From Kitasatospora kifunensis (GTDB lineage Bacteria > Actinomycetota > Actinomycetes > Streptomycetales > Streptomycetaceae), in assembly GCF_014203855.1 (NCBI RefSeq), contig NZ_JACHJV010000001.1:4278001-4342000 (forward strand): a stretch of 64,000 nt of DNA. Direction: 5' to 3'. The notes beneath the pieces were generated by a model. The model saw nothing but the letters and a program-made list of their open reading frames with translations. It did not search any database and was not told the origin of the DNA. Position 1 is the stretch's first letter, and the number at the start of each line of letters is the position of its first letter. Shown here piece by piece: positions 1 through 18,388 of this stretch. The position numbers and the translations under genes are program-made.

Positions 1-1
1 C

Positions 2-295
2 GCGGTGGGCCGCCGCACGGTCGCCGTGCTGGCCTCCCCGCGCGGCAACGCGGCCTTCATCGCCGCGCTCTGCCTGCTGGAGGCGGCGCTGCTGGTGGTG
101 CCCTCGCTGACCGGCCTGGCGCCGTGGTGGTTCGCGGCCCTGATGTCGCCGGTGATCGCCCTGCGGGCAAGCCAGTTCACGCTCGGCCTGGCGGCCGGTG
201 AGGTCCTGCGGGCCCGTCGGCTGGGCATCCACACCCACCGGGTCTGCTGCGCCCTGCTGGTGGCCGCCTGCCTGATCAACGGAGGTGCGGCATGA
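2..295 (+). CDS. Membrane protein, C-terminal part (probable UbiA-family prenyltransferase)
   Basis: Partial gene that enters from the left edge; the reading frame is open from base 2. The visible ~97 residues contain about three hydrophobic stretches, with an Arg-Arg-Thr-Val segment before the first, and end in a short tail. A basic RT motif followed by paired helices is what the C-terminus of UbiA-type polyprenyl/aromatic prenyltransferases looks like, but no catalytic Asp-rich motif lies inside the window, so the family call is an inference. The stop codon overlaps the start of the AMP-ligase gene as ATGA, so the two are translationally coupled and probably act in the same pathway. Confidence 0.45.
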   Translation, partial: AVGRRTVAVLASPRGNAAFIAALCLLEAALLVVPSLTGLAPWWFAALMSPVIALRASQFTLGLAAGEVLRARRLGIHTHRVCCALLVAACLINGGAA

Positions 296-1890
296 GGCTG
301 TTGGGCGGTCCGAGGCCGCTCGACCCCGGGCCGCTCTTCGAGACCCTGGCCGAGCGCGGCTCGCCCACCGTGGTCCGGCTCAGTCGGCCGCTGGACCTCG
401 CGCCGGAGGCCGGCTGCACCTGGACGATCCCGCAACTGGCCGAACTGGTACGGGAGATGTCGGCCGTGCTGACCGCCGCCAAGGTCCGCCCCGGTGACCG
501 GGTGGCCATCCACAAGCGCAACCACTGGGACTACGCGCTGCTGACCAGTGCCGCCGCCCGGATCGGCGCGGTGCCCGCGCTGCTCTCCCACCGGCTCGCC
601 CCCGAGGCGCTGGCCGTGCTGCTGGCGCGCCTCAACCCCGTCCTGCTGGTCTCCGACCGCTACACCCTCGCCCTCGGGGGCGCTGCCCACGGGGTGCGCA
701 CGCTCTGCCTGGACGGCCCCGCAACCGGAGCGATCGCGCTCGACGCGCTGCGCGGCGGGCCCGTCCCTGCCGTCCACCGCCGGCCGGACGACGAGCCGTT
801 GGTGATCAACCACACCTCCGGCACCACCGGGCTGCCCAAACTGGTGATCCACTCCACCACCAGCCTGGTGCGCCGACTCTCCGGTATCGAGGCGCACCGC
901 TGGCCGGTGGTCTCGGTCCGCCGCGAGGACACCGCGGCCAGCGCGATCGCCTTCGCCCACGGCCGGGCCGTCTCCTGGTCGATCTCCGCCCTGTGGGCCA
1001 GGCCGCGCACCGTCCTGCTGGTCGCCGACGCCGAACCATCCCTGGCCGCACCGCTGTTGCGCGCCCATCGGCCCACCGTGCTGGAGGCGCTGCCGGCCAC
1101 CTACATGCGCTGGCAGCCGCTCGCGGCCGAACCGGACACCCCCTTCGCCGACCTGCGGCTGTGCATCAGCACCTTCGACGCCGTGCACCCGCCCACCGTG
1201 CGGGACTTCCTGGCCGCCTCGCGGCGCCGGCGGCCGATCTGGGTGCAGGGCCTGGGGCAGACCGAGACCGGCCCGCTCACCTTCCGCGTGCTCACCCGGC
1301 GCTCGGTCGCCGAGCGCGAGCAGCGCCACCCCACCACCCGCGACCTGGGCCGTCCGGTGCCCGGCTGGGTCGGCCTGCGGGTGGTCGACCCCGAGACCAT
1401 GCGCCCGGTGCGGCGCGGCGAGCCGGGTGTTGTGCTGGCCCGGACCCCCGGGCTGTGCAGCGGGTACGAGGGCGAGCAGGAACGCTGGCAGGCCAAGCTG
1501 ACGGGGCGCTGGTTCAACACCGGTGACCTCGGGGTGCGCACCCGCACCGGCAGCCTGCGGCTACTGGACCGCGAGGTGGACATGATCCCCGGGCTGAGCT
1601 GCGTCGAGCTGGAGGACGTGCTGCACGACCGACTGCCCGAGCTGGCGGAGGCCGTGGTGCTGGCGGCCGGCGAGGGGCGCCCGCCGCTGCCGGTGCTGGT
1701 CACCCGGGGCGGCGAGCTGGACCTTCGGCGCTGGCGGCACGCGGTGCGCGACCTGCCGCCGCTGGCCGAGCCGCTGCTGCTCGGCTGGGACACCCTGCCC
1801 CGCACCGGCACTGGCAAGGTCTGCCGGCACCAACTGCGCAGCCGCTACCTGGCCGGGGTCGCCGCGCACGGTACGGGGAGGTGGACCTGA
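292..1890 (+). CDS. AMP-dependent synthetase/ligase (ANL superfamily)
   Basis: Adenylate-forming enzyme of 532 residues, the normal length for acyl/aryl-CoA ligases. The phosphate-binding loop reads HTSGTTGLPK (about residues 175-184), followed by GLGQTETGP (about 320), the NTGDLG motif (about 408) with DREVDMI, and a C-terminal GTGK lysine at about 508, expected to be the catalytic Lys of the mobile domain. It should activate a carboxylate with ATP, loading it on CoA or a carrier; the substrate cannot be read from the sequence. No carrier-protein domain is present. It overlaps the upstream membrane-protein gene by 4 bp and the downstream oxidoreductase gene by 1 bp, so the three form one operon, probably part of a specialised-metabolism locus to the left. 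Confidence 0.85.
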   Translation: MRLLGGPRPLDPGPLFETLAERGSPTVVRLSRPLDLAPEAGCTWTIPQLAELVREMSAVLTAAKVRPGDRVAIHKRNHWDYALLTSAAARIGAVPALLSHRLAPEALAVLLARLNPVLLVSDRYTLALGGAAHGVRTLCLDGPATGAIALDALRGGPVPAVHRRPDDEPLVINHTSGTTGLPKLVIHSTTSLVRRLSGIEAHRWPVVSVRREDTAASAIAFAHGRAVSWSISALWARPRTVLLVADAEPSLAAPLLRAHRPTVLEALPATYMRWQPLAAEPDTPFADLRLCISTFDAVHPPTVRDFLAASRRRRPIWVQGLGQTETGPLTFRVLTRRSVAEREQRHPTTRDLGRPVPGWVGLRVVDPETMRPVRRGEPGVVLARTPGLCSGYEGEQERWQAKLTGRWFNTGDLGVRTRTGSLRLLDREVDMIPGLSCVELEDVLHDRLPELAEAVVLAAGEGRPPLPVLVTRGGELDLRRWRHAVRDLPPLAEPLLLGWDTLPRTGTGKVCRHQLRSRYLAGVAAHGTGRWT

Positions 1891-3200
1891 TGGCCGCCGC
1901 GGAACTGGACGTCGCGGTGGTCGGCGCGGGCATCGCGGGCCTGGCCACCGCGCACCGGCTGGCCCGGGCCGGTCGCGAGGTGCGGGTCTTCGAGGCCACC
2001 GGGCGGGTCGGCGGACGGATGGCCTCCAGTCGGCACGAGGGCTACCTGATCGACGAGGGCGCCGAGACCATCGCGCTGCGCGGTTACGACGCCACCTGGG
2101 AGCTGATCCGCGCCTGCGCCCTGCCCTCGGCCGAGGTGCTGCCCATCGAGCACTCCTACGCGCTGTGGCGCGGTGGACGCGCGCACGCCCACTCCGGTCG
2201 CCTGCTCGGCCTGCTGACCGGTGCCGGAATGTCGCTGCGCGGGCGCCTGGACCTGCTGCGCTTCGGCGTCGCCGCGAGCCGCTCGGCCGCCGCGTTCGGC
2301 GAGTTGACGGTCAGTGAGCTCGCCGGGCGCTACCACCCCGACCTGTACGACGCGCTGCTCCAGCCGCTGGCCGGCGGCTTCTTCGGGTGGCACTGCGAGC
2401 GTTCGGCGATCGGCCCGATGGCCGCGATGCTGGCCGCCACCGGCGGGGTCGGCGCACGCTGGCTGACCTACCGGGACGGGATGGACACGCTGGCCCGCCG
2501 ACTCGCCGAACGGCTGCCGGTCACCACCGGCGCCACCCTGCTCCAGGTCACCGAGCGCCCCGACTCGGTGCGGCTGGAGTTCGCCGACGGGCGCACGGTC
2601 AGCGCCCGACAGGCGGTGCTGGCGATGCCCGCGCCGCAGGTGCTCGCGCTGCACCCGGGCCTGCCCGAGGAGGAGCGCCCGTACCTGACCGCCAGCAGCT
2701 ACACCCCGATGCTCAAGGTGGCCTGTCTGCTGGACCGCCCGCTGGCCTCGCCGACCCGCAGCCCCAGCTGTGGCCTGCTGATTCCCGCCACCGAGAGCCG
2801 GGTGGTGGGCGGCGTGATCCTGGACCACCTCAAGGCCGCCGGGCGGGTGCCGGCCGGGCGGGGCATGGTCAGCCTGCTGCTCACGCCCTGGGTGGTGCCC
2901 GACCTGCTGGGCGCCCCGGACGCCGAGGTGGTGGCGACCGCGGTGGCCGAGGCGGACCGCTTCCTGCCCGGACTGGCCGCCGCCCTGCGCACCGCCCGGG
3001 TGTTCCGCTACCGGCACGGCCTGCCGGAGGCCACCCCCGCCGCGCTGCGGCTGCGCCCCGCCTTCCTGGCCCGGCCGCGCCGCCGGGTGGACTACGCGGG
3101 GGACTGGCTGACGCTGCGTCCCAACAGCGAGGCGGCGGCGCACTCGGCGGCGCTGCCCGCGCAGCGGCTGGCGGGGGAGGTGAGGCCGGTGCGGTGCTGA
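1890..3200 (+). CDS. FAD-dependent oxidoreductase, protoporphyrinogen oxidase/amine oxidase type
   Basis: The N-terminus has the dinucleotide-binding motif VVGAGIAGLATAHRLARAG (about residues 8-26), an acidic residue ending the second strand (VFEATGRVGGRM), and the RVGGRM sequence typical of the amine-oxidase/protoporphyrinogen-oxidase/phytoene-desaturase superfamily. At 436 residues it is full length. A GTG at 1881 is in frame, but the GGGGAGG at 1874-1880 is spaced correctly for the ATG at 1890, which overlaps the preceding stop. It closes the three-gene operon. The role is probably dehydrogenation of a (prenylated or isoprenoid?) intermediate; haem biosynthesis is less likely because no hem genes are near. 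Confidence 0.75.
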   Translation: MAAAELDVAVVGAGIAGLATAHRLARAGREVRVFEATGRVGGRMASSRHEGYLIDEGAETIALRGYDATWELIRACALPSAEVLPIEHSYALWRGGRAHAHSGRLLGLLTGAGMSLRGRLDLLRFGVAASRSAAAFGELTVSELAGRYHPDLYDALLQPLAGGFFGWHCERSAIGPMAAMLAATGGVGARWLTYRDGMDTLARRLAERLPVTTGATLLQVTERPDSVRLEFADGRTVSARQAVLAMPAPQVLALHPGLPEEERPYLTASSYTPMLKVACLLDRPLASPTRSPSCGLLIPATESRVVGGVILDHLKAAGRVPAGRGMVSLLLTPWVVPDLLGAPDAEVVATAVAEADRFLPGLAAALRTARVFRYRHGLPEATPAALRLRPAFLARPRRRVDYAGDWLTLRPNSEAAAHSAALPAQRLAGEVRPVRC

Positions 3201-3210
3201 GGAGTCTCGG

Positions 3211-4179
3211 TCAGCGCTGAGCGGTCCACCAGTCGCGGTGCTCGGCGTACCAGCGCACGGTCCGCGCCAGCCCCTGCTCGAACGGCACCCGAGGCGCGTA
3301 GCCGAGCTGCTCGGAGATCTTCGTACTGTCCACCGAGTAGCGGCGGTCGTGTCCCTTGCGGTCGGCCACCGGTTCGATCAGCGACTCGTCGGCGCCGCAC
3401 AGCTCCAGCAGCCGCCCGGCCAGCTGCCGGTTGGTCAGCTCGGTTCCGCCGCCGATGTTGTAGACCTCGCCGGGCCGGCCCTGCTCCGCCACCAGGGCCA
3501 GCGCCCGGCAGTGGTCGGCCACGTGCAGCCAGTCGCGCACCTGCCCGCCGTCGCCGTACAGCGGCACCGTGCGCCCCTCCAGCAGGTTGCCGACGAAGAG
3601 CGGTATCAGCTTCTCCGGGTACTGGTTGGGCCCGTAGTTGTTGGAGCAGCGGGTCACGCAGACCGGCAGCCCGTGGGTGCGGTGGTAGGCCAGCGCGAGC
3701 AGATCGCCGGCCGCCTTGGAGGCCGAGTACGGCGAGCTGGGCCGCACCGGCTGCGCCTCGTCCCAGGAGCCCTGCTCGATCGACCCGTACACCTCGTCCG
3801 TGGAGACCTGGACGAACCGTGCCACCTCGGCCCGGGCCGCCGCCTCCAGCAGCGTCTGGGTGCCCAGCACATTGGTGCGCACGAACTCGGCGGCCCCCTC
3901 GATCGACCGGTCCACATGCGACTCGGCGGCCAGGTGCACCACCAGGTCGGCCCCGGTCAGCACCCGCCGCACCAGGTGGGGGTCGCAGACGTCACCGGCC
4001 ACCACGGTCAGCCGCGCACTGTCGGCCACCGCCGCCAGATTGGCCCGCAGCCCCGCATAGGTGAACTTGTCGAGCACCGTCACCTCGGCCCCCGCCAGCC
4101 CCGGGTACGCCCCGCCGATCACCTGCCGGACGAAGTGCGACCCGATGAACCCCGCGCCGCCGGTCACCACGATCCGCAC
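3211..4179 (-). CDS. rmlB: dTDP-glucose 4,6-dehydratase
   Basis: Extended short-chain dehydrogenase of 322 residues. The NAD-binding motif TGGAGFIGSHFVRQ is at residues 6-19, STDEVYG at about 122, the catalytic YSASK (Tyr-x3-Lys) at about 150, and CSNNYGPNQYPEKLIP follows; together these are diagnostic of RmlB/StrE-type enzymes. It converts dTDP-glucose to dTDP-4-keto-6-deoxyglucose, the branch point to rhamnose and other deoxysugars. The GTG start has a GGGAAGGG upstream. It faces the prenyltransferase/ligase/oxidoreductase operon end to end with only 10 bp between stops. No other deoxysugar genes are next to it, so it may serve a cluster to the left or general rhamnose supply. Confidence 0.9.
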   Translation of the reverse strand: MRIVVTGGAGFIGSHFVRQVIGGAYPGLAGAEVTVLDKFTYAGLRANLAAVADSARLTVVAGDVCDPHLVRRVLTGADLVVHLAAESHVDRSIEGAAEFVRTNVLGTQTLLEAAARAEVARFVQVSTDEVYGSIEQGSWDEAQPVRPSSPYSASKAAGDLLALAYHRTHGLPVCVTRCSNNYGPNQYPEKLIPLFVGNLLEGRTVPLYGDGGQVRDWLHVADHCRALALVAEQGRPGEVYNIGGGTELTNRQLAGRLLELCGADESLIEPVADRKGHDRRYSVDSTKISEQLGYAPRVPFEQGLARTVRWYAEHRDWWTAQR

Positions 4180-4282: not shown

Positions 4283-4372
4283 TGGCGGTAGCGGTGGGAT
4301 TCGAACCCACGGTGGAGTTGCCCCCACACACGCTTTCGAGGCGTGCTCCTTTGGCCGCTCGGACACGCTACC
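4283..4372 (-). tRNA. tRNA-Ser (anticodon CGA)
   Basis: On the minus strand the acceptor 5' strand GGTAGCG pairs with CGCTACC (plus 4287-4293). The T arm carries GGTTCGAATCC, the anticodon loop is CTCGAAA giving CGA (reads UCG), and there is a long variable arm as expected for a class II serine tRNA. The 3' CCA is encoded (plus 4283-4285). It lies downstream of tadA on the same strand. Confidence 0.95.
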
Positions 4373-7816: not shown

Positions 7817-8090
7817 AGTCTGTCTCCCCTGGGAGGAAGGGCAGCCTTGCCGACTGGCGACGGAGGTGGCCGGCGGGGCGGCGGGACGCGGAGTCCGCAG
7901 CGGGGTGCGGCCATATCCGGCAGCCTAGTCCGCTTCCCATGATGAAGGTAATAAATGATCATCATTTGGCGCACCCGAGCACTCGAAAGGGTGTACTGAC
8001 GATCATTCGGCCGCCTCATTCAGGGGGCCGACCGACGGCCCGGGGAGTCCCGGCCGACGGCTGAGCGGCCGTCAGTCGGGGTGGGCCGGC
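7817..8090. promoter_or_regulatory. Intergenic region upstream of the LytR_C gene with an AT-rich palindrome
   Basis: No gene is seen in these 274 bp. Around 7941-7990 the DNA is much richer in A+T than its surroundings and contains AAATGAT-C-ATCATTT (7953-7967), a perfect odd palindrome, with further GATCAT words at 7998-8005. This probably holds the promoter and perhaps an operator for the minus-strand LytR_C gene. Confidence 0.45.
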
Positions 8091-8387
8091 TCAGTCCATC
8101 TCGAGCACCCGCGCGTGCAGCACCTGACGCTGCTGCAGGGCGGCGCGAACCGCGCGGTGCAGCCCGTCCTCCAGGTAGAGGTCGCCGTGCCACTTGACCA
8201 CGTGGGCGAAGAGGTCGCCGTAGAAGGTTGAATCCTCGGCCAGCAGGGTTTCCAAGTCCAACTGGCCCTTGGTGGTTACCAACTGGTCGAGACGCACCGG
8301 ACGAGGGGCGACGTCCGCCCACTGACGGGTGCTGGTCCGGCCGTGATCCGGGTACGGCCGCCCGTTGCCGATGCGCTTGAAGATCAC
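8091..8387 (-). CDS. Conserved small protein, VapB-antitoxin-like by common annotation
   Basis: A 98-residue protein starting at GTG (IFKRIGNGRPYPDHG) with a conserved block QWADVAPRPVRLDQLVTTKG and a C-terminal WHGDLYLEDGLHRAVRAALQ. Very similar proteins are conserved in Streptomyces and are often labelled type II antitoxin VapB family, but I see no PIN-domain toxin gene nearby, so a toxin-antitoxin role is doubtful here. It stands alone between the LytR_C gene and the TIM-barrel-like gene on the same strand. Confidence 0.75.
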   Translation of the reverse strand: MIFKRIGNGRPYPDHGRTSTRQWADVAPRPVRLDQLVTTKGQLDLETLLAEDSTFYGDLFAHVVKWHGDLYLEDGLHRAVRAALQQRQVLHARVLEMD

Positions 8388-8529: not shown

Positions 8530-9696
8530 TCAACCGTGCAGCGCGGCGCCGATTCGGTCCATCGAGTGCAGCCGCATCAGCCCGTAGTTGTAGAACTCGA
8601 CCTCGGGCACCCCGAGCTCGCGCAGCGTCGTGATCTTCGCGGCGAGGTTGGCCGGGCCGTCGCAGTCCTGCGCCATGGGGCGCAGGATCACGGCCAGGTC
8701 GGCGGGTCGCACGCCGTGCAGCGCGAAGGCGGCGACCTTCTCGCGGACCGCCTCGGGCGTCCTGGCGTAGCCCAGCGTCTCGATGCCCACCCCGGCGGCG
8801 GTCAGCGCGGGCAGGTCGATGCCGGCCAGCCAACCGGCCCCGGGGCCGTCGCCGTCCATGAAGCTCAGCCGCATGCCCTGGCGCCCGGCCCGCTCGGCCA
8901 GTTCGGCGGCGAGCGAGGTGACGGTGGCCGCGGCGGCGTCGACGTAGGCCGCCAGCGCGCCGTCGGCCAGCCGGTCCAGCGCGGCCGGCTCGGCGGCGGC
9001 CCGGTCATCGGCCAGTCGGCGGCGGATCTCGGTGGACACCACCTGCTGGACCTCCTCGGCCGGCACCCCCTGGGCCCGGGCCGCAGACCGGCAGTGCGGG
9101 CAGAAGCAGAGGCCGAGCAGCGCCTCGGCCACCGCGCCCAGCTGCTCGAAGTAGCGCTCGTGGTGGTAGCCGTGCCGCAGGCCGTGGAAGTGCAGCGACT
9201 CGGCGCGGATCGCGTCCACGCCGTACCGGGCCAGCTCGTCGACCAGGGTGTGCGCGTAGGCGCGGACCTCGGGGTTGGCGGGGCACAGCTCGGTCAGGTG
9301 GCGGTCGCCGAAGGCGTTGGCCGGCGCGCAGTCGGGGTGCTGGAAGCCGAGCCGGTCGTTGTGGCAGAACACGGTCCAGGCGTGCAGCTTCAGTCCGCGC
9401 CGCCGGGTCTGCTCGGCCGCCTCGGCGAACGGGTCGCGCTCGCCGATCGCGCCGGCCGCGACCGGTGCGAGCCGCTGCCCGGCCCACCGCGCCGGGTCGG
9501 GGCGGAAGTACGCCGCGCCCGGCTCCAGGTAGCGCACCACCCGGGTCGGGTGGTGCGGGAAGACGTCGCGGGCCGCGTGGTAGACCGAGGCGAGGGTCAG
9601 GCCGCCGACCCCGGCCCGCTCGGTGAGGTTCCCGAAGAAGGTGTCCGCACCCTCGTCGATCAGGTCGGTGGCGAAGGCGAGGACGGACGACTGCAC
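8530..9696 (-). CDS. Hypothetical protein, probable TIM-barrel glycoside-hydrolase-like fold
   Basis: 388 residues with no signal peptide. The sequence alternates strand-helix units (LKLHAWTVFCHND, GVDAIRAESLHFHG, RLSFMDGDGPGAGWL, VEFYNYGLMRL) in a way that resembles a TIM barrel of the glycoside-hydrolase-like superfamily, with acidic residues at strand ends (AES; DGD) as possible catalytic groups. A CFCPHC motif at about residue 197 could bind a metal. The GTG start has GGAG upstream. No operon partners. The exact family and substrate are not recognisable; an isomerase of similar fold would be an alternative. Confidence 0.6.
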   Translation of the reverse strand: MQSSVLAFATDLIDEGADTFFGNLTERAGVGGLTLASVYHAARDVFPHHPTRVVRYLEPGAAYFRPDPARWAGQRLAPVAAGAIGERDPFAEAAEQTRRRGLKLHAWTVFCHNDRLGFQHPDCAPANAFGDRHLTELCPANPEVRAYAHTLVDELARYGVDAIRAESLHFHGLRHGYHHERYFEQLGAVAEALLGLCFCPHCRSAARAQGVPAEEVQQVVSTEIRRRLADDRAAAEPAALDRLADGALAAYVDAAAATVTSLAAELAERAGRQGMRLSFMDGDGPGAGWLAGIDLPALTAAGVGIETLGYARTPEAVREKVAAFALHGVRPADLAVILRPMAQDCDGPANLAAKITTLRELGVPEVEFYNYGLMRLHSMDRIGAALHG

Positions 9697-9788
9697 GGCG
9701 CGGCTCCGGGGCGGAGAGGGGAGGGGAGCCTCACGCTAGCCGCTCCGCCGAGTGATGGTCTAGACCTGCGAGGGGTGGGCGGTGCCGC

Positions 9789-10523
9789 TCAGAGGCCGAG
9801 GTCCTTCAGCTCCTTGAGCAGCTCGGCCCGGCTGCTGGAGCCGGCGGGCCCGCTGGACTCGCCGCGCGGGCCTGCCTGGCTCGCGCCCGCCGGCTCCCGG
9901 GCCGCCCTCTCCTGCGCTGCCCGCTCCTGCCCCGCGCGGTCGCGCAGCAGCCAGGCGCCCGCCACCCCGCCGACCAGCCCGCCCAGGTGGGCGAGCCAGC
10001 TCACTCCGCCCGGCGCCCCAGGCGTCGCGCCGACCAGCTCGTAGGCGAAGGAGGCCGCCATCACCACGCCGATCAGCGTGTCGATCAGATGCCGGTCGAA
10101 GAGCCCGCGCAGCACCACGTAGCCGAGGTAGCCGAAGATCAGCCCGCTGGCGCCGACCGAGACCGTGTTGCCGTCCTGGAAGATCCACACTGCCAGGCCG
10201 CTGGTCACGGTGATCAGCAGGGTCAGCAGCAGGAACTTCTTGACGCCCCGGTAGGCCGCCAGGAAGCCGAAGACGAACAGCGGCCCGGAGTTGCCCTCCA
10301 GGTGCTGCCAGCTGAAGTGCAGCAGCGGTGCGGTGAAGATCTCCGGCAGCCGGGTGATGTCGTGCGGCCGGATCCCGTACTGGAGCGCCAGCTCGTTCTG
10401 GTCCGACCAGTTGCCGAGCTGGATCGTCCAGACCAGGCAGAGGAAGCCGAAGATCACGAAGAAGGCCTTGCGCGCCTCCGCGATCATCCGGGCCTCCGCG
10501 CTGCGCAGATCGTGCTCCGCCAT
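9789..10523 (-). CDS. Rhomboid-family intramembrane serine protease
   Basis: 244 residues with six likely transmembrane helices and a soluble Ala/Glu/Arg/Gly-rich tail of about 60 residues. The rhomboid active-site signature is present: HLEGNSG (His-x3-Asn) at about residue 75, the nucleophile motif VGASGLIFG (GxSG) at about 123-131, and the partner His in SWLAHLGGLVGG near 175. The protein should cleave membrane substrates within the bilayer. The ATG start is preceded by GGGGAGA. It is divergent from the secreted mannosidase gene. Confidence 0.88.
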   Translation of the reverse strand: MAEHDLRSAEARMIAEARKAFFVIFGFLCLVWTIQLGNWSDQNELALQYGIRPHDITRLPEIFTAPLLHFSWQHLEGNSGPLFVFGFLAAYRGVKKFLLLTLLITVTSGLAVWIFQDGNTVSVGASGLIFGYLGYVVLRGLFDRHLIDTLIGVVMAASFAYELVGATPGAPGGVSWLAHLGGLVGGVAGAWLLRDRAGQERAAQERAAREPAGASQAGPRGESSGPAGSSSRAELLKELKDLGL

Positions 10524-10644: not shown

Positions 10645-13446
10645 ATGACTGTTCGTCAGATGATCACTGTGGTGCTGGCCGCTGTGCTGGCCGGCGCGAG
10701 TGGCACCCCGGCGGTGGCCGCGGCCAGCACGCCCACCGTAAAGCACCGGCCCACCGCCAAGCAGCGGCCCGCCCCCAAACACCGGACGCAGGTCGACGAC
10801 CCGGCCCAGTACGTCAACCCGTTCGTCGGCACGGAGCAGGGCGCCGTCGACTACGGCAACGGCGGTGGCGCGGGCAACACCTTCCCCGGCGCGAGCGCCC
10901 CGATGGGGATGGTCCAGTGGAGCCCGGACACCGTCACCTACCAGCACGGCGGCTACCTCTACAGCGACCAGCGGATCCGCGGCTTCAGCCTGACCCACAT
11001 CTCCGGCGCGGGCTGCGGCGACTACGGCAACATCCCGTTCCTGCCGATCCTCGGTGACACCCCGGTGGGCCACGAGACCTTCTCGCACGACCACGAGTCG
11101 GCGGCGCCGGGCAGCTACGCGGTCACCTTCGACAACGGGCTGCGCACCGAGCTGGCCACCACCCAGCGCTCGGGCATCGCCCGGTTCAGCTACCCGGCGG
11201 GCCAGACCGCCTCGCTCACCGTGGACGCCGGCCGGGCCTTCAACAAGGCCAGCGGCTCGGTGACCATCGGCACCGACAGCATCTCCGGTTACACCGACGG
11301 CGGCGGTTTCTGCGGGTCGAACAACCGCTACCGGATCTACTTCACCGCCGTCTTCGACCACCCGTTCATCCGGTCCGGCATCGTGCGCGGCGGCCGGCTG
11401 GACACCACCCGCCGCACCGCCAGCGGCGAGAGCGCGGGCATCGCCCCGCAGCCGCCGCGCACCGCCGCGGCCCAGGCCAAGGCGGCCGGCCACCGCGGCC
11501 CCGGTCAGGTGCTGCACCCCGACGCGCCGGACACCGGCTCCGGTGCGCAGGCGCTGGTCTCCTTCGACACCCGGGACAGCCGCACCGTCACCGCCCGGGT
11601 CGGCATCTCCTTCACCAGCGCCGAGGGCGCCCGCGCCAACCTGGACGCCGAGCAGTCGGGCCGCCCCGACCTCGATCAGGTCAAGGACGCCACCCGGGGC
11701 CGCTGGAACGAGCTGCTGGGCCGGATCGCGGTGGCCGGCGGGACCGGCAAGCAGACGCGCACCTTCTACACCGCGCTCTACCACTCGTTCCTGCACCCGA
11801 GCGTGCTCAGCGACGTGGACGGCCACTACCCCGGCTTCGACGGCAAGGTGCACCGCACCGACTCCGGGAAAGTCCAATATGCCGACTTCTCGGGCTGGGA
11901 CGTCTACCGCTCCGAGATGCAGCTGGTCGCCCTGCTGGCCCCCAAGGAGGCCTCCGACATCGCGCAGTCGCTGCTCAACCAGGGCACCCAGGCCGGCTAC
12001 TTCGACCGCTGGACGGTGGCCAACGGCGGCACCGGGGTGATGGTGGGCGATCCCGTGCCCATGATCGCCGCCACCATCCACGCCTTCGGCGCCACCGACT
12101 TCGACGCCGCGGGGCTGCTCCGGCAAGCGCTCGCCGGCCGTCAGGACGACCGCGAACGCCCGGGCCACGCGGTCTACGACAGCCAGGGCTACCTGTCGGT
12201 GGGCACCGCGGGCGAGTGGGGCACGGTCTCCAGCACCCTGGAATACACCAGCGCCGACTTCGCGCTCGCGCAGCTCGCGGGGAGCCTGGGCGACACCGCC
12301 GACCACGATGCGCTGCTGCGCCGCTCGGCCGGCTGGCGCAACCTGTTCAACATCAACAGCGACTACCTCCAGCCGCGCGACGCCGACCACGGCTGGCCGG
12401 ACTTCAAGCCCACCCAGCAGGACGAGTACGTCGAGGGCGACGCCGCCCAGTACACCTGGATGGTCCCGTTCAACCACCGCGGCCTGTTCGACGCGATGGG
12501 CGGCAACCAGGCGGTGGTCCCGCGGCTGGACAGCTTCCTCGAGCAGCTGAACGCCGGCCCGGGCGCGCCGCACGCCTACCTGGGCAACGAGCCCTCGCTC
12601 AACACCCCCTGGACCTACGACTACGCGGGCCGCCCCGACCGCACCGCCGACGTGGTGCGCCGCGTGGTGACCACGCTGTTCGGCGACACGCCCGACGGCG
12701 AGGTGGGCAACGACGACCTGGGCGAGATGTCCTCCTGGGCGGTCTGGGGCTCGATCGGGCTCTACCCGCAGGTCCCGGGCCGGGCCGAACTGGTGCTGGC
12801 CAGCCCGCTCTTCCCGCAGATCACCATCACCCGCGGCACCGGTGCCTCGATCGACATCAGCGCGCCCGGCGCCTCCGCCGAGGTCCGCTACGTGCACGGG
12901 CTGCGGGTCAACGGCGCGGCCTCCACCCGCCCGTGGGTCGGCCCCGCGCTGATCACGGACGGCGGCACCATGGAGTACGAGCTGGCCGCCACCCCCGACC
13001 CGAGCTGGGGCACCGACCCGGGCGACGCGCCGCCCTCCTTCGACGTCGGCCCGGCGCAGCCGGTGACCGGCGTGCTGACCGGCCTGGTCGGCAAGTGCCT
13101 GGACGTCGACGGCGGCAAGGCCGACGACGGCACGGCCATCCAGCTCTGGGGCTGCAACGGTGGGAACGGCCAGCGCTGGACGCTGGCGAGCGACGGCACG
13201 GTGCGCGCGCTCGGCCGCTGTCTGGACGCGAAGGACAGTGGAACCGCCGACGGCACGGCCATCCAGCTCTGGGACTGCAACGGCACCGGCGCGCAGCAGT
13301 GGTGGGCACGCCCGGACGGTTCGCTCTACAGCCCGCCGGCCGGCCGCTGCCTGGACGTCCCGCACAGCCGCACCGATGACGGCACCAGGCTGCAGCTCTG
13401 GGACTGCAACGGGACGGCCGCGCAGCACTGGACGATGTCGCACTGA
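10645..13446 (+). CDS. Secreted GH92 alpha-mannosidase with C-terminal ricin-type lectin domain
   Basis: 933 residues. The N-terminus (VRQMITVVLAAVLAG...AVAAAS) is a Sec signal peptide, followed by a Lys/Pro/His-rich spacer. YVNPFVGTEQG near residue 56, HGGYLYSDQRIRGFSLTHIS, and NEPSLNTPWTYDYAG plus VGNDDLGEMSSWAVWGS near the end of the catalytic part are hallmark stretches of glycoside hydrolase family 92, calcium-dependent exo-alpha-mannosidases. From about residue 808, three repeats with QLWGCNG/QLWDCNG and QRW/QQW/QHW motifs form a ricin B-lectin (CBM13) domain that should bind sugar polymers. The frame is open 354 bp further upstream, but the signal peptide fixes the start near 10645 (or ATG 10660). 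It probably degrades fungal or yeast mannans or N-glycans outside the cell. Confidence 0.92.
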   Translation: MTVRQMITVVLAAVLAGASGTPAVAAASTPTVKHRPTAKQRPAPKHRTQVDDPAQYVNPFVGTEQGAVDYGNGGGAGNTFPGASAPMGMVQWSPDTVTYQHGGYLYSDQRIRGFSLTHISGAGCGDYGNIPFLPILGDTPVGHETFSHDHESAAPGSYAVTFDNGLRTELATTQRSGIARFSYPAGQTASLTVDAGRAFNKASGSVTIGTDSISGYTDGGGFCGSNNRYRIYFTAVFDHPFIRSGIVRGGRLDTTRRTASGESAGIAPQPPRTAAAQAKAAGHRGPGQVLHPDAPDTGSGAQALVSFDTRDSRTVTARVGISFTSAEGARANLDAEQSGRPDLDQVKDATRGRWNELLGRIAVAGGTGKQTRTFYTALYHSFLHPSVLSDVDGHYPGFDGKVHRTDSGKVQYADFSGWDVYRSEMQLVALLAPKEASDIAQSLLNQGTQAGYFDRWTVANGGTGVMVGDPVPMIAATIHAFGATDFDAAGLLRQALAGRQDDRERPGHAVYDSQGYLSVGTAGEWGTVSSTLEYTSADFALAQLAGSLGDTADHDALLRRSAGWRNLFNINSDYLQPRDADHGWPDFKPTQQDEYVEGDAAQYTWMVPFNHRGLFDAMGGNQAVVPRLDSFLEQLNAGPGAPHAYLGNEPSLNTPWTYDYAGRPDRTADVVRRVVTTLFGDTPDGEVGNDDLGEMSSWAVWGSIGLYPQVPGRAELVLASPLFPQITITRGTGASIDISAPGASAEVRYVHGLRVNGAASTRPWVGPALITDGGTMEYELAATPDPSWGTDPGDAPPSFDVGPAQPVTGVLTGLVGKCLDVDGGKADDGTAIQLWGCNGGNGQRWTLASDGTVRALGRCLDAKDSGTADGTAIQLWDCNGTGAQQWWARPDGSLYSPPAGRCLDVPHSRTDDGTRLQLWDCNGTAAQHWTMSH

Positions 13447-13495
13447 GCCAGGCCCCGGGGCGCGCTCCGCAAGGACAGGCCGCCAGGCCGGCGGG

Positions 13496-14113
13496 TCACT
13501 TCGCCGGCTTGGCGGCCTTCCTGGTCTTCTCGGTCTTCTCGGCCTTGGCCGCCTGCTTCAGCTGCTGCTTGTAGGCGCGGACCTGGCTGAGCGAGTCGGG
13601 GTCGGTGATGTCCGCCACCGAGCGGTAGCAACCGTCCTCCCCGTAGGGGCCGGCCGCCTCGCGCCAGCCCGTGGGGCGCACGCCGAACTGCTTGCCCAGC
13701 AGGGCCAGGAAGATCTGCGACTTCTGGGTCCCGAAGCCCGGCAGCGCGCTCAGCCGTGCCAACAGGTCGGACCCGTCGGCCGCGTCCTGCCAGAGGGCGG
13801 CGGCCTCGCCGTCGTAGTGCTCCACCAGGTACTGGCAGAGCTGCTGCACCCGCTTGGCCATCGAGCCGGGGTAGCGGTGCACGGCGGGCTTGGCGGAGAG
13901 CAGCGCGGCGAAGGCGTCCGGGTCGTAGCCGGCGATCTGGTGGGCGTCCAGCTCCTCGGTGCCCAGGCGCTGACTGATCGTCAGTGGACCGGTGAACGCC
14001 CATTCGAGGGGAACTTGTTGATCCAGCAACATGCCGATCAGGGCAGCCAGCGGGCTGCGGCTGAGCAGCGCGTCGGCGTCTTGCTGTTGGGCGAGGTGGA
14101 GGGAGACGGCCAT
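13496..14113 (-). CDS. HhH-GPD superfamily base-excision DNA repair protein
   Basis: 205 residues. DPLAALIGMLLDQQVP-type text (SPLAALIGMLLDQQVPLEWAF, about residues 20-40) and the helix-hairpin-helix LSALPGFGTQKSQIFLALLG (about 120-140) are the two hallmarks of the HhH-GPD DNA glycosylase fold. No 4Fe-4S Cys cluster is seen, unlike EndoIII/MutY. The C-terminus is a Lys/Ala-rich tail (KAEKTEKTRKAAKPAK) likely to contact DNA. The ATG at 14113 is preferred over 14122. The gene faces the GH92 gene; the lesion specificity is unknown. Confidence 0.8.
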   Translation of the reverse strand: MAVSLHLAQQQDADALLSRSPLAALIGMLLDQQVPLEWAFTGPLTISQRLGTEELDAHQIAGYDPDAFAALLSAKPAVHRYPGSMAKRVQQLCQYLVEHYDGEAAALWQDAADGSDLLARLSALPGFGTQKSQIFLALLGKQFGVRPTGWREAAGPYGEDGCYRSVADITDPDSLSQVRAYKQQLKQAAKAEKTEKTRKAAKPAK

Positions 14114-14426
14114 GGCTCCCATGGTGGTCGAGGCCGCCGCTCGGTCGGCCGCGCAACACGCCGCCGGGCCGAGCTGCCGGTGACGGAGGGCGAGACCTGT
14201 GGCGTGGGCGGTGAAGAGGAGGCGAGAGAATCCGGGATTCCCCTTTAATGATGACTCATCAGTAGGTTGTTCCGCATTGTTGCCAGCCTCCGAAGAATCC
14301 TCAAGTAATCCTCAAATTAATGCATCGATCTGGCCTCGAAGGGTTACCAGAATTTCCGGTCCGGGTTACGTTGCCAGGCAACGCGCGGAGCATCCCCCGC
14401 CGCGCAGGAGAGGTAGCGAAACACTT
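14114..14426 (+). promoter_or_regulatory. Upstream region of the amino-acid permease, with palindrome CGTTGCCAGGCAACG
   Basis: The 313 bp between the divergent repair gene and the permease hold no convincing gene. Bases 14225-14365 are clearly A+T-richer than the surroundings, consistent with promoter DNA. A perfect 7+1+7 palindrome, CGTTGCC-A-GGCAACG, lies at 14369-14383, 43 bp before the permease ATG, in a position suited to a repressor. Confidence 0.45.
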
Positions 14427-15908
14427 ATGAGCACGGACATCCCCAAGCGCTCGAAGTCCGGATCGCCCGTCCCCGACCCCAGGGCGGCCGACGCCGCCAC
14501 GCCGGTCGACCTCGGCGGACACGGCGGCGGTGGGCACCTGCAGGCCGGCCTGAAGAACCGGCACCTGTCGATGATCGCGATCGGCGGTGTGATCGGCGCG
14601 GGCCTGTTCGTCGGCTCCGGCGCCGGCATCGCGGCGACCGGCCCGGGCATCCTGCTCTCCTACCTGCTGGCCGGTGTGCTGGTGGTGATGGTGATGCGGA
14701 TGCTCGGCGAGATGGCCGCCGCCGACCCGCAGAGCGGTTCGTTCTCCGCCTACGCGGACCGGGCGCTCGGCCGTTGGGCGGGCTTCACGATCGGGTGGCT
14801 GTACTGGTTCTTCTGGGTGGTGGTGCTGGGCGTCGAGGCCACCGCCGGTGCGAAGATCCTCAACGGCTGGCTGCCGAGCGTGCCGCAGTGGGCGTTCGCG
14901 CTTCTGGTGATGGCCGTGCTGACCTCGACCAACCTCTTCTCGGTCGCCTCCTACGGCGAGTTCGAATTCTGGTTCGCCGGGATCAAGGTGGTCGCGATCG
15001 CCGCGTTCATCGTGATCGGCCTGCTCGCGGTGTTCGGCGTGCTGCCGGGTACCCACGCGGTGGGCACCACCAATCTGTTCGGGCACGGCGGATTTCTGCC
15101 GCACGGTGTCGGGGCGGTCTTCAGCGGCATGCTGACCGTGGTCTTCGCCTTCATGGGCAGCGAGATCGTCACCCTGGCGGCGGGCGAGTCGAGCGACCCG
15201 GAGCGGGCGGTCAGCAAGGCGACCAACAGCGTGATCTGGCGGATCGGGATCTTCTACCTCGGCTCGATCGCGATCGTGGTGACCCTGCTGCCGTGGAACT
15301 CGGCCTCGGTCAAGGGCAGCCCGTACGTGGCGGTGCTGGAGCACGTCGGGATCCCCGGGGCGGGCCAGGTGATGAACGTCATCGTGCTGACCGCCGTGCT
15401 GTCCTGCCTCAACTCCGGGCTCTACACGGCCTCCCGGATGGCCTTCTCGCTCGGCCAGCGCGGTGACGCGCCGGCTTCCTTCGCCAAGGTGACCAGCCGG
15501 GGCGTGCCGCGCACCGCGATCCTGGCCTCGGTGGTCTTCGGCTTCGTCGCGGTCTTCTTCAACTACACCTCGCCGAACACCGTCTTCCAGTTCCTGCTGA
15601 ACTCCTCCGGTGCGGTGGCGCTCTTCGTCTGGCTGGTGATCTGCGTCTCGCAGCTGCGGATGCGCCGGATCATCGAGCGTGAGTCGCCCGAGCGGCTGAC
15701 CGTGCGGATGTGGCTCTTCCCGTACCTGACCTGGGCCACCATCGGGTTGATCGCCTTCGTGGTGATCTACATGTTCACCGACCACGACGGGCGCAACCAG
15801 ATGATCCTCTCGCTGGTGGCCGCCGCGATCGTGCTGGTGGCCGCCAAGGTGGTGGACGCCCGCCGCAAGGCGGCAGCGGCAGCGGCAGCAGCCGCCGCCG
15901 TGAGCTGA
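14427..15908 (+). CDS. Amino-acid permease (APC superfamily, GabP/AnsP-like)
   Basis: 493 residues with 12 predicted transmembrane helices. The N-terminal LKNRHLSMIAIGGVIGAGLF with GSGAGIAATGPG is the substrate/sodium-site loop of the amino-acid transporter family (residues about 43-78), and SGSFSAYADRALGRWAGF matches GABA/asparagine/aromatic permeases. The polar N-terminus (about 40 residues) and an Ala-run tail are cytoplasmic. The ATG at 14427 has GGAGAGG upstream. The substrate is most likely an amino acid such as GABA, asparagine or proline; it cannot be fixed by sequence reading. It faces the MFS gene with only 3 bp between stops. Confidence 0.9.
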   Translation: MSTDIPKRSKSGSPVPDPRAADAATPVDLGGHGGGGHLQAGLKNRHLSMIAIGGVIGAGLFVGSGAGIAATGPGILLSYLLAGVLVVMVMRMLGEMAAADPQSGSFSAYADRALGRWAGFTIGWLYWFFWVVVLGVEATAGAKILNGWLPSVPQWAFALLVMAVLTSTNLFSVASYGEFEFWFAGIKVVAIAAFIVIGLLAVFGVLPGTHAVGTTNLFGHGGFLPHGVGAVFSGMLTVVFAFMGSEIVTLAAGESSDPERAVSKATNSVIWRIGIFYLGSIAIVVTLLPWNSASVKGSPYVAVLEHVGIPGAGQVMNVIVLTAVLSCLNSGLYTASRMAFSLGQRGDAPASFAKVTSRGVPRTAILASVVFGFVAVFFNYTSPNTVFQFLLNSSGAVALFVWLVICVSQLRMRRIIERESPERLTVRMWLFPYLTWATIGLIAFVVIYMFTDHDGRNQMILSLVAAAIVLVAAKVVDARRKAAAAAAAAAAVS

Positions 15909-15911
15909 GCC

Positions 15912-17465
15912 TCAGTTGCCGCTCGGCGCCTCCCGGACCAGCCAGCTCACCGCGAAGGTGAGCAGCGCCAGGACGGTGGCGCCGAGCAGCATGCCGTGCA
16001 GGCCCGTGCCGGCGGCGACGCGGAAGGCGTCCCTGGCGGCGGGCGGCAGCTCGCGCAGCTGGGCGGGCGCCAGGGTGTGCGAGCCGCTCGCCAGGCGGTG
16101 CGCGGCGGCGGTACCCAGCTGCCGGGCCAGGCTCGCCTGCAGCCGGTCGGCGTAGGCGGTGCCCAGGAGCGCGATGCCCAGCGAGCCGCCCAGGGTGCGA
16201 GCCAGCGTGACCGTCCCGCTGGCCGCCCCGAGGTCGCGCGGCGGGGCGCTGAGGGTGGTGATCAGCAGGCAGCTCTGCGAGAGCAGGCCGATGCCGATCC
16301 CGGTGACGGTGGCCAGCAGCGCGGTGGCCAGGGGCGGGGTGCCCGGGCCGACCAAGCGCAGCACCAGCAGGCCGGTGGTCAGCAGCGCGCCGCCGGCGAT
16401 CGGGTAGCGGCGGTAGCGCCCGGTGCGGCCGATCCCGCGGCCGGCGCCGAGCTGGGCGCCGAGCATGCCCAGCAGCAGCGGGAGCAGCAGCAGACCGGCG
16501 GCCGTGGGCGAGCTGCCGCGGCCGGACTGCAGGTACTGCGGCAGGCAGGTGGTCACGGCGAGCATCACCGCGCCGACGAGCAGGCTGAGCAGTTGGGCGA
16601 CGGTGAAGTTGGCGTTGCCGAACAGCCGCGGCGGGATGATCGGCTCCTCGGCCCGCCGCTCGGCGAACCAGAAGCCGACCAGGGCGAGCACGCCGAGCGC
16701 GGCCAGGCCCAGCGAGCGCGGGTCGCTCCAGGCGTACCGGGTGCCGCCGACGCTGGCCAGCAGGGTCAGGCTGAGGATGCCGGCGGTCAGCAGCCCGGTG
16801 CCGAGCAGGTCGAGCCTGGCCCTGATCCGCTCGGTCCGCAGCCGGACCAGGGTGGCGACCAGCAGCAGCGCGAGGCCGCCGAGCGGCAGGTTCACGTAGA
16901 AGGTCCAGCGCCAGCTGAGCCGGTCGGTGAGGAAGCCGCCGATCAGTGGTCCGCCGATGAACGCGATCGGCATCATCACGCCGATCATCGACTGGAGCCG
17001 GGTGCGCAGTCGGCCTGCGCCCAGCACGGTGAGGATCGACAGCGCCCCGACCATCAACCCGCCGGCGCCCAGGCCCTGCAGGGTCCGGAAGGCGATCAAC
17101 TGGGTCATGTCGGTGGACAGTCCGGCCAGCGCCGAGCCCAGCAGGAAGAGCCCGATCGAGGCCATGAAGGTGCCCTTGCGGCCGTACAGGTCGCCGAGCT
17201 TGCCCCAGATCGGCGTGCTCGCGGCGCTGCTGAGCAGGTACGCCGTCACCACCCAGGAGAGCTGCTGCAGGCCGCCCAGCTGGCCGACGATGGTGGGCAG
17301 CGCGGTGCCGACGATCAGTCCGTCGAGCATCGCCAGGAACATTCCGAGCAGCAGCCCGAAGGCTCCGAGGTAGAGCCGGCGGCGGGCGGCGGGGGAGTCG
17401 TCGTCGCGGTCTGCGAGGGCGGCGGGCTTCGGTGGGCGCTCGGTCTGCCGGGTCTGCTCGGTCAT
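15912..17465 (-). CDS. MFS drug exporter, DHA2 (14-TMS) type
   Basis: 517 residues with 14 predicted membrane helices, the EmrB/QacA-type layout. After a charged N-terminus come GLLLGMFLAMLDGLIVGTALPTI (TM1, with the conserved acidic residue), the loop LGDLYGRKGTF of motif A, and LGAGGLMVGALSI. Such proteins expel drugs or endogenous antibiotics using the proton gradient. The ATG start has GGAGGGG. It is divergent from a TetR gene across a 113-bp promoter region carrying two long direct repeats, so it is almost certainly repressed by that TetR. Confidence 0.9.
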   Translation of the reverse strand: MTEQTRQTERPPKPAALADRDDDSPAARRRLYLGAFGLLLGMFLAMLDGLIVGTALPTIVGQLGGLQQLSWVVTAYLLSSAASTPIWGKLGDLYGRKGTFMASIGLFLLGSALAGLSTDMTQLIAFRTLQGLGAGGLMVGALSILTVLGAGRLRTRLQSMIGVMMPIAFIGGPLIGGFLTDRLSWRWTFYVNLPLGGLALLLVATLVRLRTERIRARLDLLGTGLLTAGILSLTLLASVGGTRYAWSDPRSLGLAALGVLALVGFWFAERRAEEPIIPPRLFGNANFTVAQLLSLLVGAVMLAVTTCLPQYLQSGRGSSPTAAGLLLLPLLLGMLGAQLGAGRGIGRTGRYRRYPIAGGALLTTGLLVLRLVGPGTPPLATALLATVTGIGIGLLSQSCLLITTLSAPPRDLGAASGTVTLARTLGGSLGIALLGTAYADRLQASLARQLGTAAAHRLASGSHTLAPAQLRELPPAARDAFRVAAGTGLHGMLLGATVLALLTFAVSWLVREAPSGN

Positions 17466-17483
17466 GGTGGGACCCCTCCGTGT

Positions 17484-17553
17484 GTACGCCGTCTACTGCG
17501 GATACAACGTACACATTGCCGCGTACGCCGTCTACTGGGAATACGATGTACGC
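17484..17553. promoter_or_regulatory. Tandem TetR operator candidates between the MFS and TetR genes
   Basis: Two near-identical ~30-bp units, 17484-17513 and 17523-17553, share GTACGCCGTCTACTG and then GATAC/AATAC and GTAC. Their start-to-start distance is 39 bp. Each unit has GTAC at both ends, giving a loose dyad. They fill the divergent promoter region, so one regulator dimer pair could control both genes. Confidence 0.7.
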
Positions 17554-17578
17554 ACGCCCAGTAGTGAAGGAGGTCCTG

Positions 17579-18340
17579 GTGGCCGCTCGCAAGGAAGCCC
17601 CGCCCGGCAGCGCCGACGATGCCAAGGGGGCGCCCGCCTCCCTCTGGGAGCGCCTGGACCGCCCCGCGCCCGCGCCGCGCGCCACGCTGACCGCGCAGCG
17701 GATCGCCACCGTGGGCGTGGCCATCGCCGACGCGGAGGGGTTGGAGGCGATCACCATGCGGCGGCTGGCCACCGAGCTGGGCGTCGCTCCGATGGCGGCC
17801 TACCGCTACGTCTCCGGCAAGGACGACCTGCTGGAACTGATGGTCGACCTGGTCCACGGCGAGCTGGAGCTGCCCGACCCCGCGGTCGGCTGGCGCGAGA
17901 CCCTGCGCACCATCGCGCTGCGCACCCGGGCCCTGCTGTTCGCGCACCCGTGGCTGGCCCGGCTCAACTCGCCGCAGGCGATGCTCGCGCTCACCCCGAA
18001 CCGGCTGGCCGTCTCCGAGTGCGCGCTGGCCGCGATGGCCGGGCTCGGGCTGGACGTCGACACCACGCAGGCCCTGGCCCGCAGCGTCGACCTCTACACA
18101 CGCGGCGCCACCCACTCCGAGATCGTGATCCAGCAGCTGATGGCCAGTCAGGGATGGAACGACGGCGATGAGTTGCGGGTCGGTCTCGGTTCACAGATGA
18201 GCTGGCTGATGGGCACCGGGCGGTACCCGGTGCTGGAGCGGCACCTGGTGGCGGCGGTCCGCAAGGACGATCCGGACTGGCAGTTCGAGGTCGGCCTCGA
18301 CTGCGTGCTCGACGGCATCGCCGCCCGGCTGCCCGGCTGA
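17579..18340 (+). CDS. TetR-family transcriptional regulator
   Basis: 253 residues. The HTH is at about 40-85 (IATVGVAIADAEGLEAITMRR, LATELGVAPMAAYRYVSGKDDLLELM), followed by a TetR_C_1-type ligand domain (HPWLARLNSP...). The GTG at 17579 sits 5 bp after AAGGAGG; ORF extensions to 17546 or earlier are less likely. Divergent from the DHA2 exporter and presumably its ligand-controlled repressor. The helix-turn-helix and the LLELMVDLVHGE segment resemble TetR regulators of macrolide or tetracycline-type exporters. Confidence 0.88.
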   Translation: MAARKEAPPGSADDAKGAPASLWERLDRPAPAPRATLTAQRIATVGVAIADAEGLEAITMRRLATELGVAPMAAYRYVSGKDDLLELMVDLVHGELELPDPAVGWRETLRTIALRTRALLFAHPWLARLNSPQAMLALTPNRLAVSECALAAMAGLGLDVDTTQALARSVDLYTRGATHSEIVIQQLMASQGWNDGDELRVGLGSQMSWLMGTGRYPVLERHLVAAVRKDDPDWQFEVGLDCVLDGIAARLPG

Positions 18341-18354
18341 GCCCGCCCGGCTGA

Positions 18355-18388
18355 GCCCGTCGGGCGGCCCGGTAGCCGCCCGACGGGC
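18355..18388. terminator. GC-rich hairpin between the TetR gene and the helicase-C-like gene
   Basis: The arms GCCCGTCGGGCGGC (18355-18368) and GCCGCCCGACGGGC (18375-18388) are perfect complements with a 6-nt loop. It lies between two convergent genes and can terminate both. Confidence 0.8.

What the first reader, a model, noticed from the sequence alone, without database searches (positions are those of the whole stretch)
2..4179. Edge of a biosynthetic cluster: membrane prenyltransferase-like, AMP ligase, FAD oxidase and deoxysugar gene
The three plus-strand genes overlap at their ends and form one operon. AMP ligase plus an amine-oxidase-like flavoprotein plus a probable prenyltransferase is not a known primary-metabolism set, and a dTDP-sugar dehydratase faces them. 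Most of the cluster lies outside the window.
Basis: inference. Interest (0 to 1): 0.5.

Follow-up and report, generated by a model that had tools for sequence, protein, structure and literature searches.

The report
Uncharacterised prenylated-metabolite biosynthesis gene cluster
The left edge of the window holds the last genes of a complete, portable gene cluster that Kitasatospora-like soil bacteria and some relatives probably use to build an isoprenoid-tailed, nitrogen-containing small molecule whose structure is not known.

Summary
The first protein is UbiA (Pfam, above cut-off). The window shows the last three of 13 genes spanning 14.2 kb, 11 kb of it left of the window. The others are two DegT aminotransferases, two Gfo/Idh dehydrogenases, a xylose-isomerase-like TIM barrel, an Ldh2-type dehydrogenase, an M20 peptidase, DUF6917, a methyltransferase and a small, probably secreted protein. 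Of nine genomes seen with cluster genes at this site, seven have all 13 and two hold remnants. In 19 of 20 cluster-less relatives the site is 0.8-2.1 kb. Related sets occur in Nocardiopsis, Actinomadura, Nonomuraea and Glycomyces. The dTDP-glucose dehydratase is genuine but strain-specific (0 of 5 relatives have it there). Three divergent versions carry isoprenoid-precursor genes, and 12 of 15 chosen loci carry a nucleotide-sugar dehydrogenase, though none of the 21 named loci does. Most likely the cluster builds a sugar-derived, amino-acid-like head group, prenylates it with UbiA and tailors it. Product, prenyl length and acceptor are not shown. No title or abstract listed in ten paper searches describes the set. 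It is a new variant of a known kind, of moderate interest.

The parts
1..295 (+). 3' part of the UbiA-family membrane prenyltransferase gene (whole gene: L010:19333 to window 295; 320 aa)
   Evidence: Pfam PF01040 60.6 bits, cut-off 34.2; both Asp-rich motifs in 19 of 19 aligned homologues
292..1890 (+). AMP-forming acyl/aryl ligase, 532 aa, ATGA overlap with UbiA
   Evidence: PF00501 170.7 bits; overlap seen; found near UbiA in 21 of 21 named loci
1881..3200 (+). FAD-dependent oxidoreductase, amine-oxidase/phytoene-desaturase-like, 439 aa
   Evidence: PF01593 138.3 bits; best NCBIfam HpnE 77.5 bits, far below its cut-off 283
3211..4179 (-). dTDP-glucose 4,6-dehydratase (RmlB): genuine gene but, on the evidence, a neighbour and not part of the cluster
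   Evidence: TIGR01181 428 bits, cut-off 365; only copy over cut-off in the genome; absent at the same site in 5 of 5 relatives
4283..4372 (-). tRNA-Ser(CGA) at the right border of the variable site
   Evidence: ARAGORN; the same tRNA in L053, L054, L055, L056, L058, L059
4472..5038 (-). tadA-type deaminase gene, conserved right flank of the site
   Evidence: ORF, named from sequence by recall; its homologue lies 0.8-2.1 kb from the left-flank Dabb gene in 19 of 20 cluster-less relatives

Best explanation
The three plus-strand genes are the end of a 13-gene biosynthetic cluster inserted between a Dabb-domain gene and tRNA-Ser/tadA. It makes a specialised metabolite with an isoprenoid tail. Inferred working: (1) module A (two Gfo/Idh dehydrogenases, two DegT aminotransferases, TIM-barrel epimerase/isomerase, Ldh2-type dehydrogenase, M20 hydrolase, DUF6917) oxidises, transaminates, isomerises and deacylates a sugar, most likely a nucleotide-linked hexuronate, into an amino-acid-like head group; (2) UbiA joins a prenyl diphosphate to that head group or a derivative; (3) the methyltransferase methylates, the AMP ligase activates a carboxylate for amide or thioester formation, and the flavoprotein oxidises or desaturates. 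Shown here: gene families, conservation, co-occurrence, presence/absence at one site, and conserved motifs of UbiA, M20 and the TIM barrel. Inferred: every reaction, the substrate and the product.
For: Families. Co-inheritance: 38 of 40 genomes with a ligase at least 52% identical also have DUF6917, against 7 of the 257 others; 35 of the 38 have both on one contig, 3.7-22.6 kb apart. All 13 genes in 7 of 9 genomes seen with cluster genes at this site. Isoprenoid role: a distant version (G118) has DXS and IspE over their NCBIfam cut-offs, an IspH-like gene 68% identical to the G278 protein, which passes TIGR00216, and a prenyl-diphosphate-synthase-like gene. G278 and G269 also have the prenyl synthase, and G278 DXS and IspH. 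Sugar role: nucleotide-sugar dehydrogenase in 12 of 15 chosen family loci; the best solved relatives of DegT1 and DegT2 include a protein named scyllo-inositol transaminase, 2oga and WbpE; Gfo2 is nearest to L-arabinose 1-dehydrogenases. M20 is weakly nearest to N-acetyl-ornithine and LysW-lysine hydrolases, with its putative metal ligands invariant in 9 sequences. Cluster UbiAs separate from five other UbiA-family proteins of this genome with support 0.999.
Against: No product is known and no enzyme was assayed. No nucleotide-sugar dehydrogenase was found in any of the 7 full clusters at this site or in any of the 21 named loci (stretches of at most 21 kb); the nearest one in this genome is 0.9 Mb away. 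The window's own cluster has no prenyl-synthase or MEP gene among its 13. The modules can separate: L063 and L128 have UbiA and ligase without module A in about 20 kb, and G171/G181 have module A genes without UbiA in the fetched 30-40 kb, beside tryptophan- and anthranilate-like genes. Ligase and flavoprotein are missing from the fetched stretches of G278 and G269. Matches to characterised enzymes are distant: none of the rows shown for the ten cluster proteins reaches its cut-off. The genomes are related, so the counts are not independent events.
Confidence: 0.5

Rival explanations
1. The prenyl acceptor is an aromatic or quinone-like ring, and the cluster makes a menaquinone- or ubiquinone-like lipid or inhibitor; module A supplies a separate amino group or sugar.
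For: The nearest NCBIfam models are quinone enzymes: UbiA to MenA (34.2 bits), methyltransferase to UbiE (29.7 bits), ligase weakly to MenE and benzoate-CoA ligase. One version (G118) has a QcrB cytochrome b gene within the cluster region. L063 and L128 have UbiA and ligase without module A nearby.
Against: All those scores are far below the curated cut-offs. No aromatic-ring pathway was seen among the 13 genes. More than one QcrB copy also occurs in cluster-less genomes, and 11 cluster genomes have a single match, so there is no association.
Confidence: 0.22
2. Module A builds an aminocyclitol from inositol (IolG-like oxidation, StsC-like transamination, IolE-like TIM barrel) and UbiA prenylates the cyclitol, working like the proposed ebo product.
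For: TIM barrel and Gfo2 show weak hits to IolE and IolG. DegT1's best solved hit is named glutamine--scyllo-inositol transaminase. The ebo operon pairs a UbiA with a xylose-isomerase-like TIM barrel and was proposed to make an isoprenoid-cyclitol (PMC5133447, passages). No nucleotide-sugar dehydrogenase in the 21 named loci or at this site.
Against: Scores to IolE/IolG are far below cut-offs. No sugar-phosphate cyclase near: the genome's three DHQ-synthase matches are at 6.7 and 6.9 Mb and on another contig. A nucleotide-sugar dehydrogenase accompanies 12 of 15 chosen family loci, which fits a nucleotide sugar better.
Confidence: 0.19
3. The product is a polyprenyl-linked envelope lipid with a structural role, not a specialised metabolite.
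For: The UbiA superfamily includes decaprenyl-phosphate phosphoribosyltransferase, and this genome has one. L064, G118 and L128 carry MmpL-like transporters (named from sequence by recall).
Against: Patchy presence, empty sites and remnants within one genus argue for a dispensable trait. The cluster UbiAs are distinct from that phosphoribosyltransferase.
Confidence: 0.09

Closest known systems
ebo operon (EboA-F) of cyanobacteria, Bacteroidetes and eustigmatophyte plastids (PMC5133447, passages read; PMC9235831, passages read)
   Same: UbiA-superfamily prenyltransferase together with a xylose-isomerase-like TIM barrel in a conserved operon of unknown product; proposed isoprenoid-cyclitol product
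   Different: No sugar phosphate cyclase (EboD), TatD-like EboB or EboF-type phosphodiesterase was recognised among the 13 genes here; the passages read name no DegT, Gfo/Idh, Ldh2, M20 or DUF6917 gene in ebo
Actinomycete meroterpenoid clusters with a membrane UbiA-type prenyltransferase, e.g. the 1,6-dihydroxyphenazine prenyltransferase cluster (PMC4044012, title and start of abstract in the listing)
   Same: Membrane-bound prenyltransferase inside a secondary-metabolite cluster of an actinomycete, with isoprenoid genes in some versions here
   Different: The acceptor there is an aromatic phenazine with its own genes; here the companion genes point to a sugar- or amino-acid-like acceptor
WbpA/WbpB/WbpE-type UDP-diaminouronic acid pathway (recalled; WbpE chains hit)
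   Same: Nucleotide-sugar dehydrogenase (in some versions), Gfo/Idh dehydrogenase and DegT aminotransferase logic
   Different: Two DegT and two Gfo/Idh genes, plus Ldh2, M20, TIM barrel and a prenyltransferase; no such dehydrogenase in the window's own cluster

Membership tests
UbiA superfamily | Match to PF01040 above the curated cut-off | tested here: met
   60.6 bits, cut-off 34.2
UbiA superfamily | Two Asp-rich motifs | tested here: met
   DDxxGxRDGSD and YSNxxDxxGD in 19 of 19. The first departs from the NDxxDxxxD spacing that I recall for UbiA/MenA.
UbiA superfamily | Prenyl transfer activity | not testable with these tools
   needs an assay
ebo operon | EboD-type sugar phosphate cyclase in the cluster | tested here: not met
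   three DHQ_synthase matches in the genome, none near the cluster
ebo operon | xylose-isomerase-like TIM barrel and UbiA-superfamily gene together | tested here: met
   PF01261 98.9 bits and PF01040 60.6 bits; orthology to EboE/EboC was not tested
Menaquinone/ubiquinone biosynthesis (MenA, UbiE, MenE) | NCBIfam equivalog cut-offs | tested here: not met
   MenA 34.2 of 264 bits, UbiE 29.7 of 378, MenE 59.6 of 330.15; the genome's MqnP lies elsewhere
Hydroxysqualene dehydroxylase HpnE | TIGR03467 cut-off | tested here: not met
   77.5 of 283.05 bits
UDP-diaminouronate (WbpA/B/E-like) pathway | NDP-sugar 6-dehydrogenase with the DegT/Gfo genes | tested here: inconclusive
   12 of 15 chosen family loci, but 0 of 7 full clusters at this site and 0 of 21 named loci; an enzyme 60% identical to the L064 one lies elsewhere in this genome
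dTDP-deoxysugar cluster | RmlB conserved with the cluster | tested here: not met
   genuine RmlB but beside the cluster only in this genome

The most novel reading that the evidence does not exclude
A new class of prenylated natural product: UbiA attaches an isoprenoid to a non-aromatic, nucleotide-sugar-derived diamino (hexuronic or aldonic) acid or an iminosugar formed from it. DUF6917 would be a dedicated new enzyme or partner of the pathway, fused to DXS in one lineage.
Probability: 0.28. Interest if true: 0.75.

Novelty: new variant of a known kind. Interest (0 to 1): 0.5.

Why it matters
A conserved, portable cluster family in several actinobacterial genera, with no described product in the listings of the paper searches made here, is a concrete target for natural-product discovery. 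It pairs a membrane prenyltransferase with an amino-sugar-type module and the uncharacterised family DUF6917. A single open frame joining DUF6917 to DXS in one relative gives a testable handle on that family.

Tried and rejected
RmlB as a cluster member: rejected. QcrB as a cluster self-resistance gene: suggested by G118, rejected because extra copies are not tied to the cluster. A known cluster by name: ten answered paper searches listed no title or abstract start that describes this gene set. Only listings were seen, apart from passages of two papers; two searches listed 20 of 22 and 20 of 34 papers. DUF6917 has no hit in that library. The library lacks most subscription journals, and no cluster database (such as MIBiG) was available.

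DUF6917 fold: model with mean pLDDT 91.6. Foldseek against PDB gave no match at E <= 0.001. The VIA-align second look had best Z 4.5 (rmsd 3.1, 73 aligned), to translation-factor beta-barrel domains, and no clear relative. This shows neither a new fold nor a known one.

Limits: ligase identity >= 52% in the co-occurrence count was chosen after seeing the list; G118 (46%) falls outside it although it has the cluster. For G263 the distance uses its second ligase copy (C35); the better-matching copy (C72, L063) has no module A gene in 20 kb. The seven full clusters at this site were fetched because their ligase matched best. The 15 'other' loci were chosen by me; L054, L060, L061, L063, L070-L072, L107, L128, L129 and G027 were left out of that tally. 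Many stretches are cut at about 20 kb, so the counts are lower bounds. ORF choices rest on codon-position GC, not on a gene finder.
Full report
Location. The window is positions 4,278,001-4,342,000 of contig C1 of a 9.57-Mb genome. The four ORFs of the finding are real. UbiA and ligase overlap as ATGA.

The cluster. The left flank was fetched (L010 position = window + 20,000). From left to right: Dabb gene 8025-8318(-) (name recalled), DUF6917 9000-9425(-), Gfo/Idh-2 9422-10390(-), Ldh2-type dehydrogenase from about 10387(-), M20 peptidase from about 11568(-), TIM barrel 12938-13912(-), Gfo/Idh-1 13902-14939(-). Then, divergently, DegT1 15190-16437(+), DegT2 16434-17570(+), a small, probably secreted protein 17875-18381(+) with no Pfam match, methyltransferase 18462-19277(+), UbiA, ligase and flavoprotein. 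Ldh2 and M20 were named from sequence and from solved relatives. That is 13 genes in about 14.2 kb (L010:9000 to window 3200), of which the window shows the last three.

Conservation. A scan with the UbiA protein gave 21 named loci in Kitasatospora/Streptomyces, Nocardiopsis, Glycomyces, Sphaerimonospora, Allonocardiopsis, Nonomuraea and Actinomadura. Of the 21, all hold ligase and flavoprotein, 19 DegT2, 18 DegT1, 16 methyltransferase, 16 Ldh2, 15 DUF6917, 15 Gfo2, and 14 each M20, TIM barrel and Gfo1; several stretches are cut short. These versions also carry an EF-hand protein (15), a CoA-transferase III (19) and a second ligase (16). In the family sample of 297 genomes, a ligase at least 52% identical occurs in 40. 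DUF6917 occurs in 38 of those 40 and in 7 of the other 257. The exceptions among the 40 are G193, which keeps the ligase and broken flavoprotein pieces, and G284, where UbiA and ligase stand without module A. Across the phylum sample DUF6917 was found in 1 of 396 genomes, this one.

A portable cluster at a tRNA-Ser site. Nine genomes were seen with cluster genes next to Dabb or tRNA-Ser/tadA. Seven have all 13 (this one, G177, G155, G207, G151, G147, G197); in G151 the right border lies outside the stretch. G193 and G027 hold remnants from opposite ends, with Dabb and tadA 8,472 and 17,669 bp apart. In 20 genus members without a ligase match and without DUF6917, Dabb and tadA matches are 782-2124 bp apart in 19 and on different contigs in one, G053. 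In this genome the distance is 16,154 bp. G045 has its cluster at 7.53 Mb and the site at 4.43 Mb of the same contig, and G049 has them on different contigs; their gaps here are 849 and 878 bp. G145 has 2,102 and G014 7,256 bp. The cluster is therefore dispensable and sits at more than one place.

RmlB. The facing gene is a genuine dTDP-glucose 4,6-dehydratase and the only one over cut-off in the genome. It lies between the flavoprotein and the tRNA only here: 0 of 5 relatives in which that interval was seen have it (L053, L055, L056, L058, L059). It is best read as a neighbour.

Function. UbiA: both Asp-rich motifs are kept in 19 of 19 homologues, and the group is separated with support 0.999 from five other UbiA-family proteins of this genome. 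Three of those five pass NCBIfam cut-offs: heme O synthase, MqnP and decaprenyl-phosphate phosphoribosyltransferase. So this UbiA is an extra prenyltransferase. Direct support for an isoprenoid product comes from divergent versions. G118 carries DXS and IspE over NCBIfam cut-offs, an IspH-like gene 68% identical to the G278 protein that passes TIGR00216, and a prenyl diphosphate synthase nearest to short-chain enzymes but below their cut-offs. G278 and G269 also carry the prenyl synthase, and G278 also DXS and IspH. In G118 DUF6917 and DXS lie in one 787-aa reading frame. No such genes were found in the 21 named loci or in the seven full clusters at this site.

Head group. The best solved relatives of DegT1 and DegT2 include a protein named glutamine--scyllo-inositol transaminase, transaminase 2oga and WbpE. 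Gfo2 is nearest to L-arabinose 1-dehydrogenase. Ldh2 is nearest to malate/lactate-type dehydrogenases, with delta1-piperideine-2-carboxylate reductase last of 13. M20 is weakly nearest to N-acetyl-ornithine and LysW-lysine hydrolases, with putative metal ligands invariant in 9 sequences (ligand assignment recalled). The TIM barrel keeps invariant E170, D200, H224 and E268 in 19 sequences, the kind of metal site I recall for sugar epimerases and isomerases. A nucleotide-sugar dehydrogenase accompanies 12 of 15 chosen family loci, but 0 of 7 full clusters at this site and 0 of 21 named loci. This genome has one elsewhere that is 60% identical to that of L064. The inferred order is nucleotide hexuronate, 3-oxidation, transamination, release, C1 oxidation, deacylation, further oxidation or amination, then prenylation. 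Against it: the missing dehydrogenase, the loci with UbiA and ligase but no module A (L063, L128), and G171/G181, whose fetched stretches carry module A genes without UbiA beside genes that look like tryptophan and anthranilate synthesis (those names by recall). The inositol and quinone alternatives remain open at lower weight.

Comparison. ebo (passages of PMC5133447, and PMC9235831) works most alike in principle but fails membership: no sugar phosphate cyclase near. The quinone equivalogs and HpnE fail their cut-offs. Ten answered paper searches (listed under Tried and rejected) listed no title or abstract start on this set; the library is partial. The family is thus a new variant of a known kind: a UbiA-type meroterpenoid-like cluster with an unusual sugar/amino-acid module.

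Noticed in passing
L104:1887-4250(-) (genome G118): DUF6917 and 1-deoxy-D-xylulose-5-phosphate synthase lie in one 787-aa open frame with no stop; in G278 the two genes are adjacent.
   Followed up: partly
L098:1284-9988 (genome G027, same Dabb-tadA site): After a remnant of the cluster, the site holds what look like restriction/modification genes (ATPase, helicase-like, cytosine methyltransferase-like, named from sequence by recall), so the tRNA-Ser site may be a hotspot for accessory genes.
   Followed up: no
L099-L100, L101 (genomes G171, G181): Module A genes without UbiA in the fetched stretch, next to tryptophan-synthase-, anthranilate-synthase- and ligase-like genes (named by recall): perhaps a second product family using the same head group.
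   Followed up: partly
L069:18946 into L103 (genome G118): An actinobacterial-type QcrB cytochrome b gene within the cluster region; extra QcrB copies are widespread and not tied to the cluster.
   Followed up: yes
L042:6825-7463 and L048:384-776: Small companions of unknown role: EF-hand protein(s) in 15 of 21 named loci, and a small protein without a Pfam match whose family was seen in 13 of the 44 loci clustered.
   Followed up: no
L063 and L128 (genomes G263, G284): UbiA and ligase (with flavoprotein in L063) stand without module A in about 20 kb; perhaps a related but simpler prenylation cluster.
   Followed up: no
L009/L010, about 15.4-24.6 kb left of the window: A separate locus with sugar-nucleotide, glycosyltransferase-like and large exported-protein genes, also present left of the site in G027; looks like a polysaccharide locus, not part of the cluster.
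   Followed up: no
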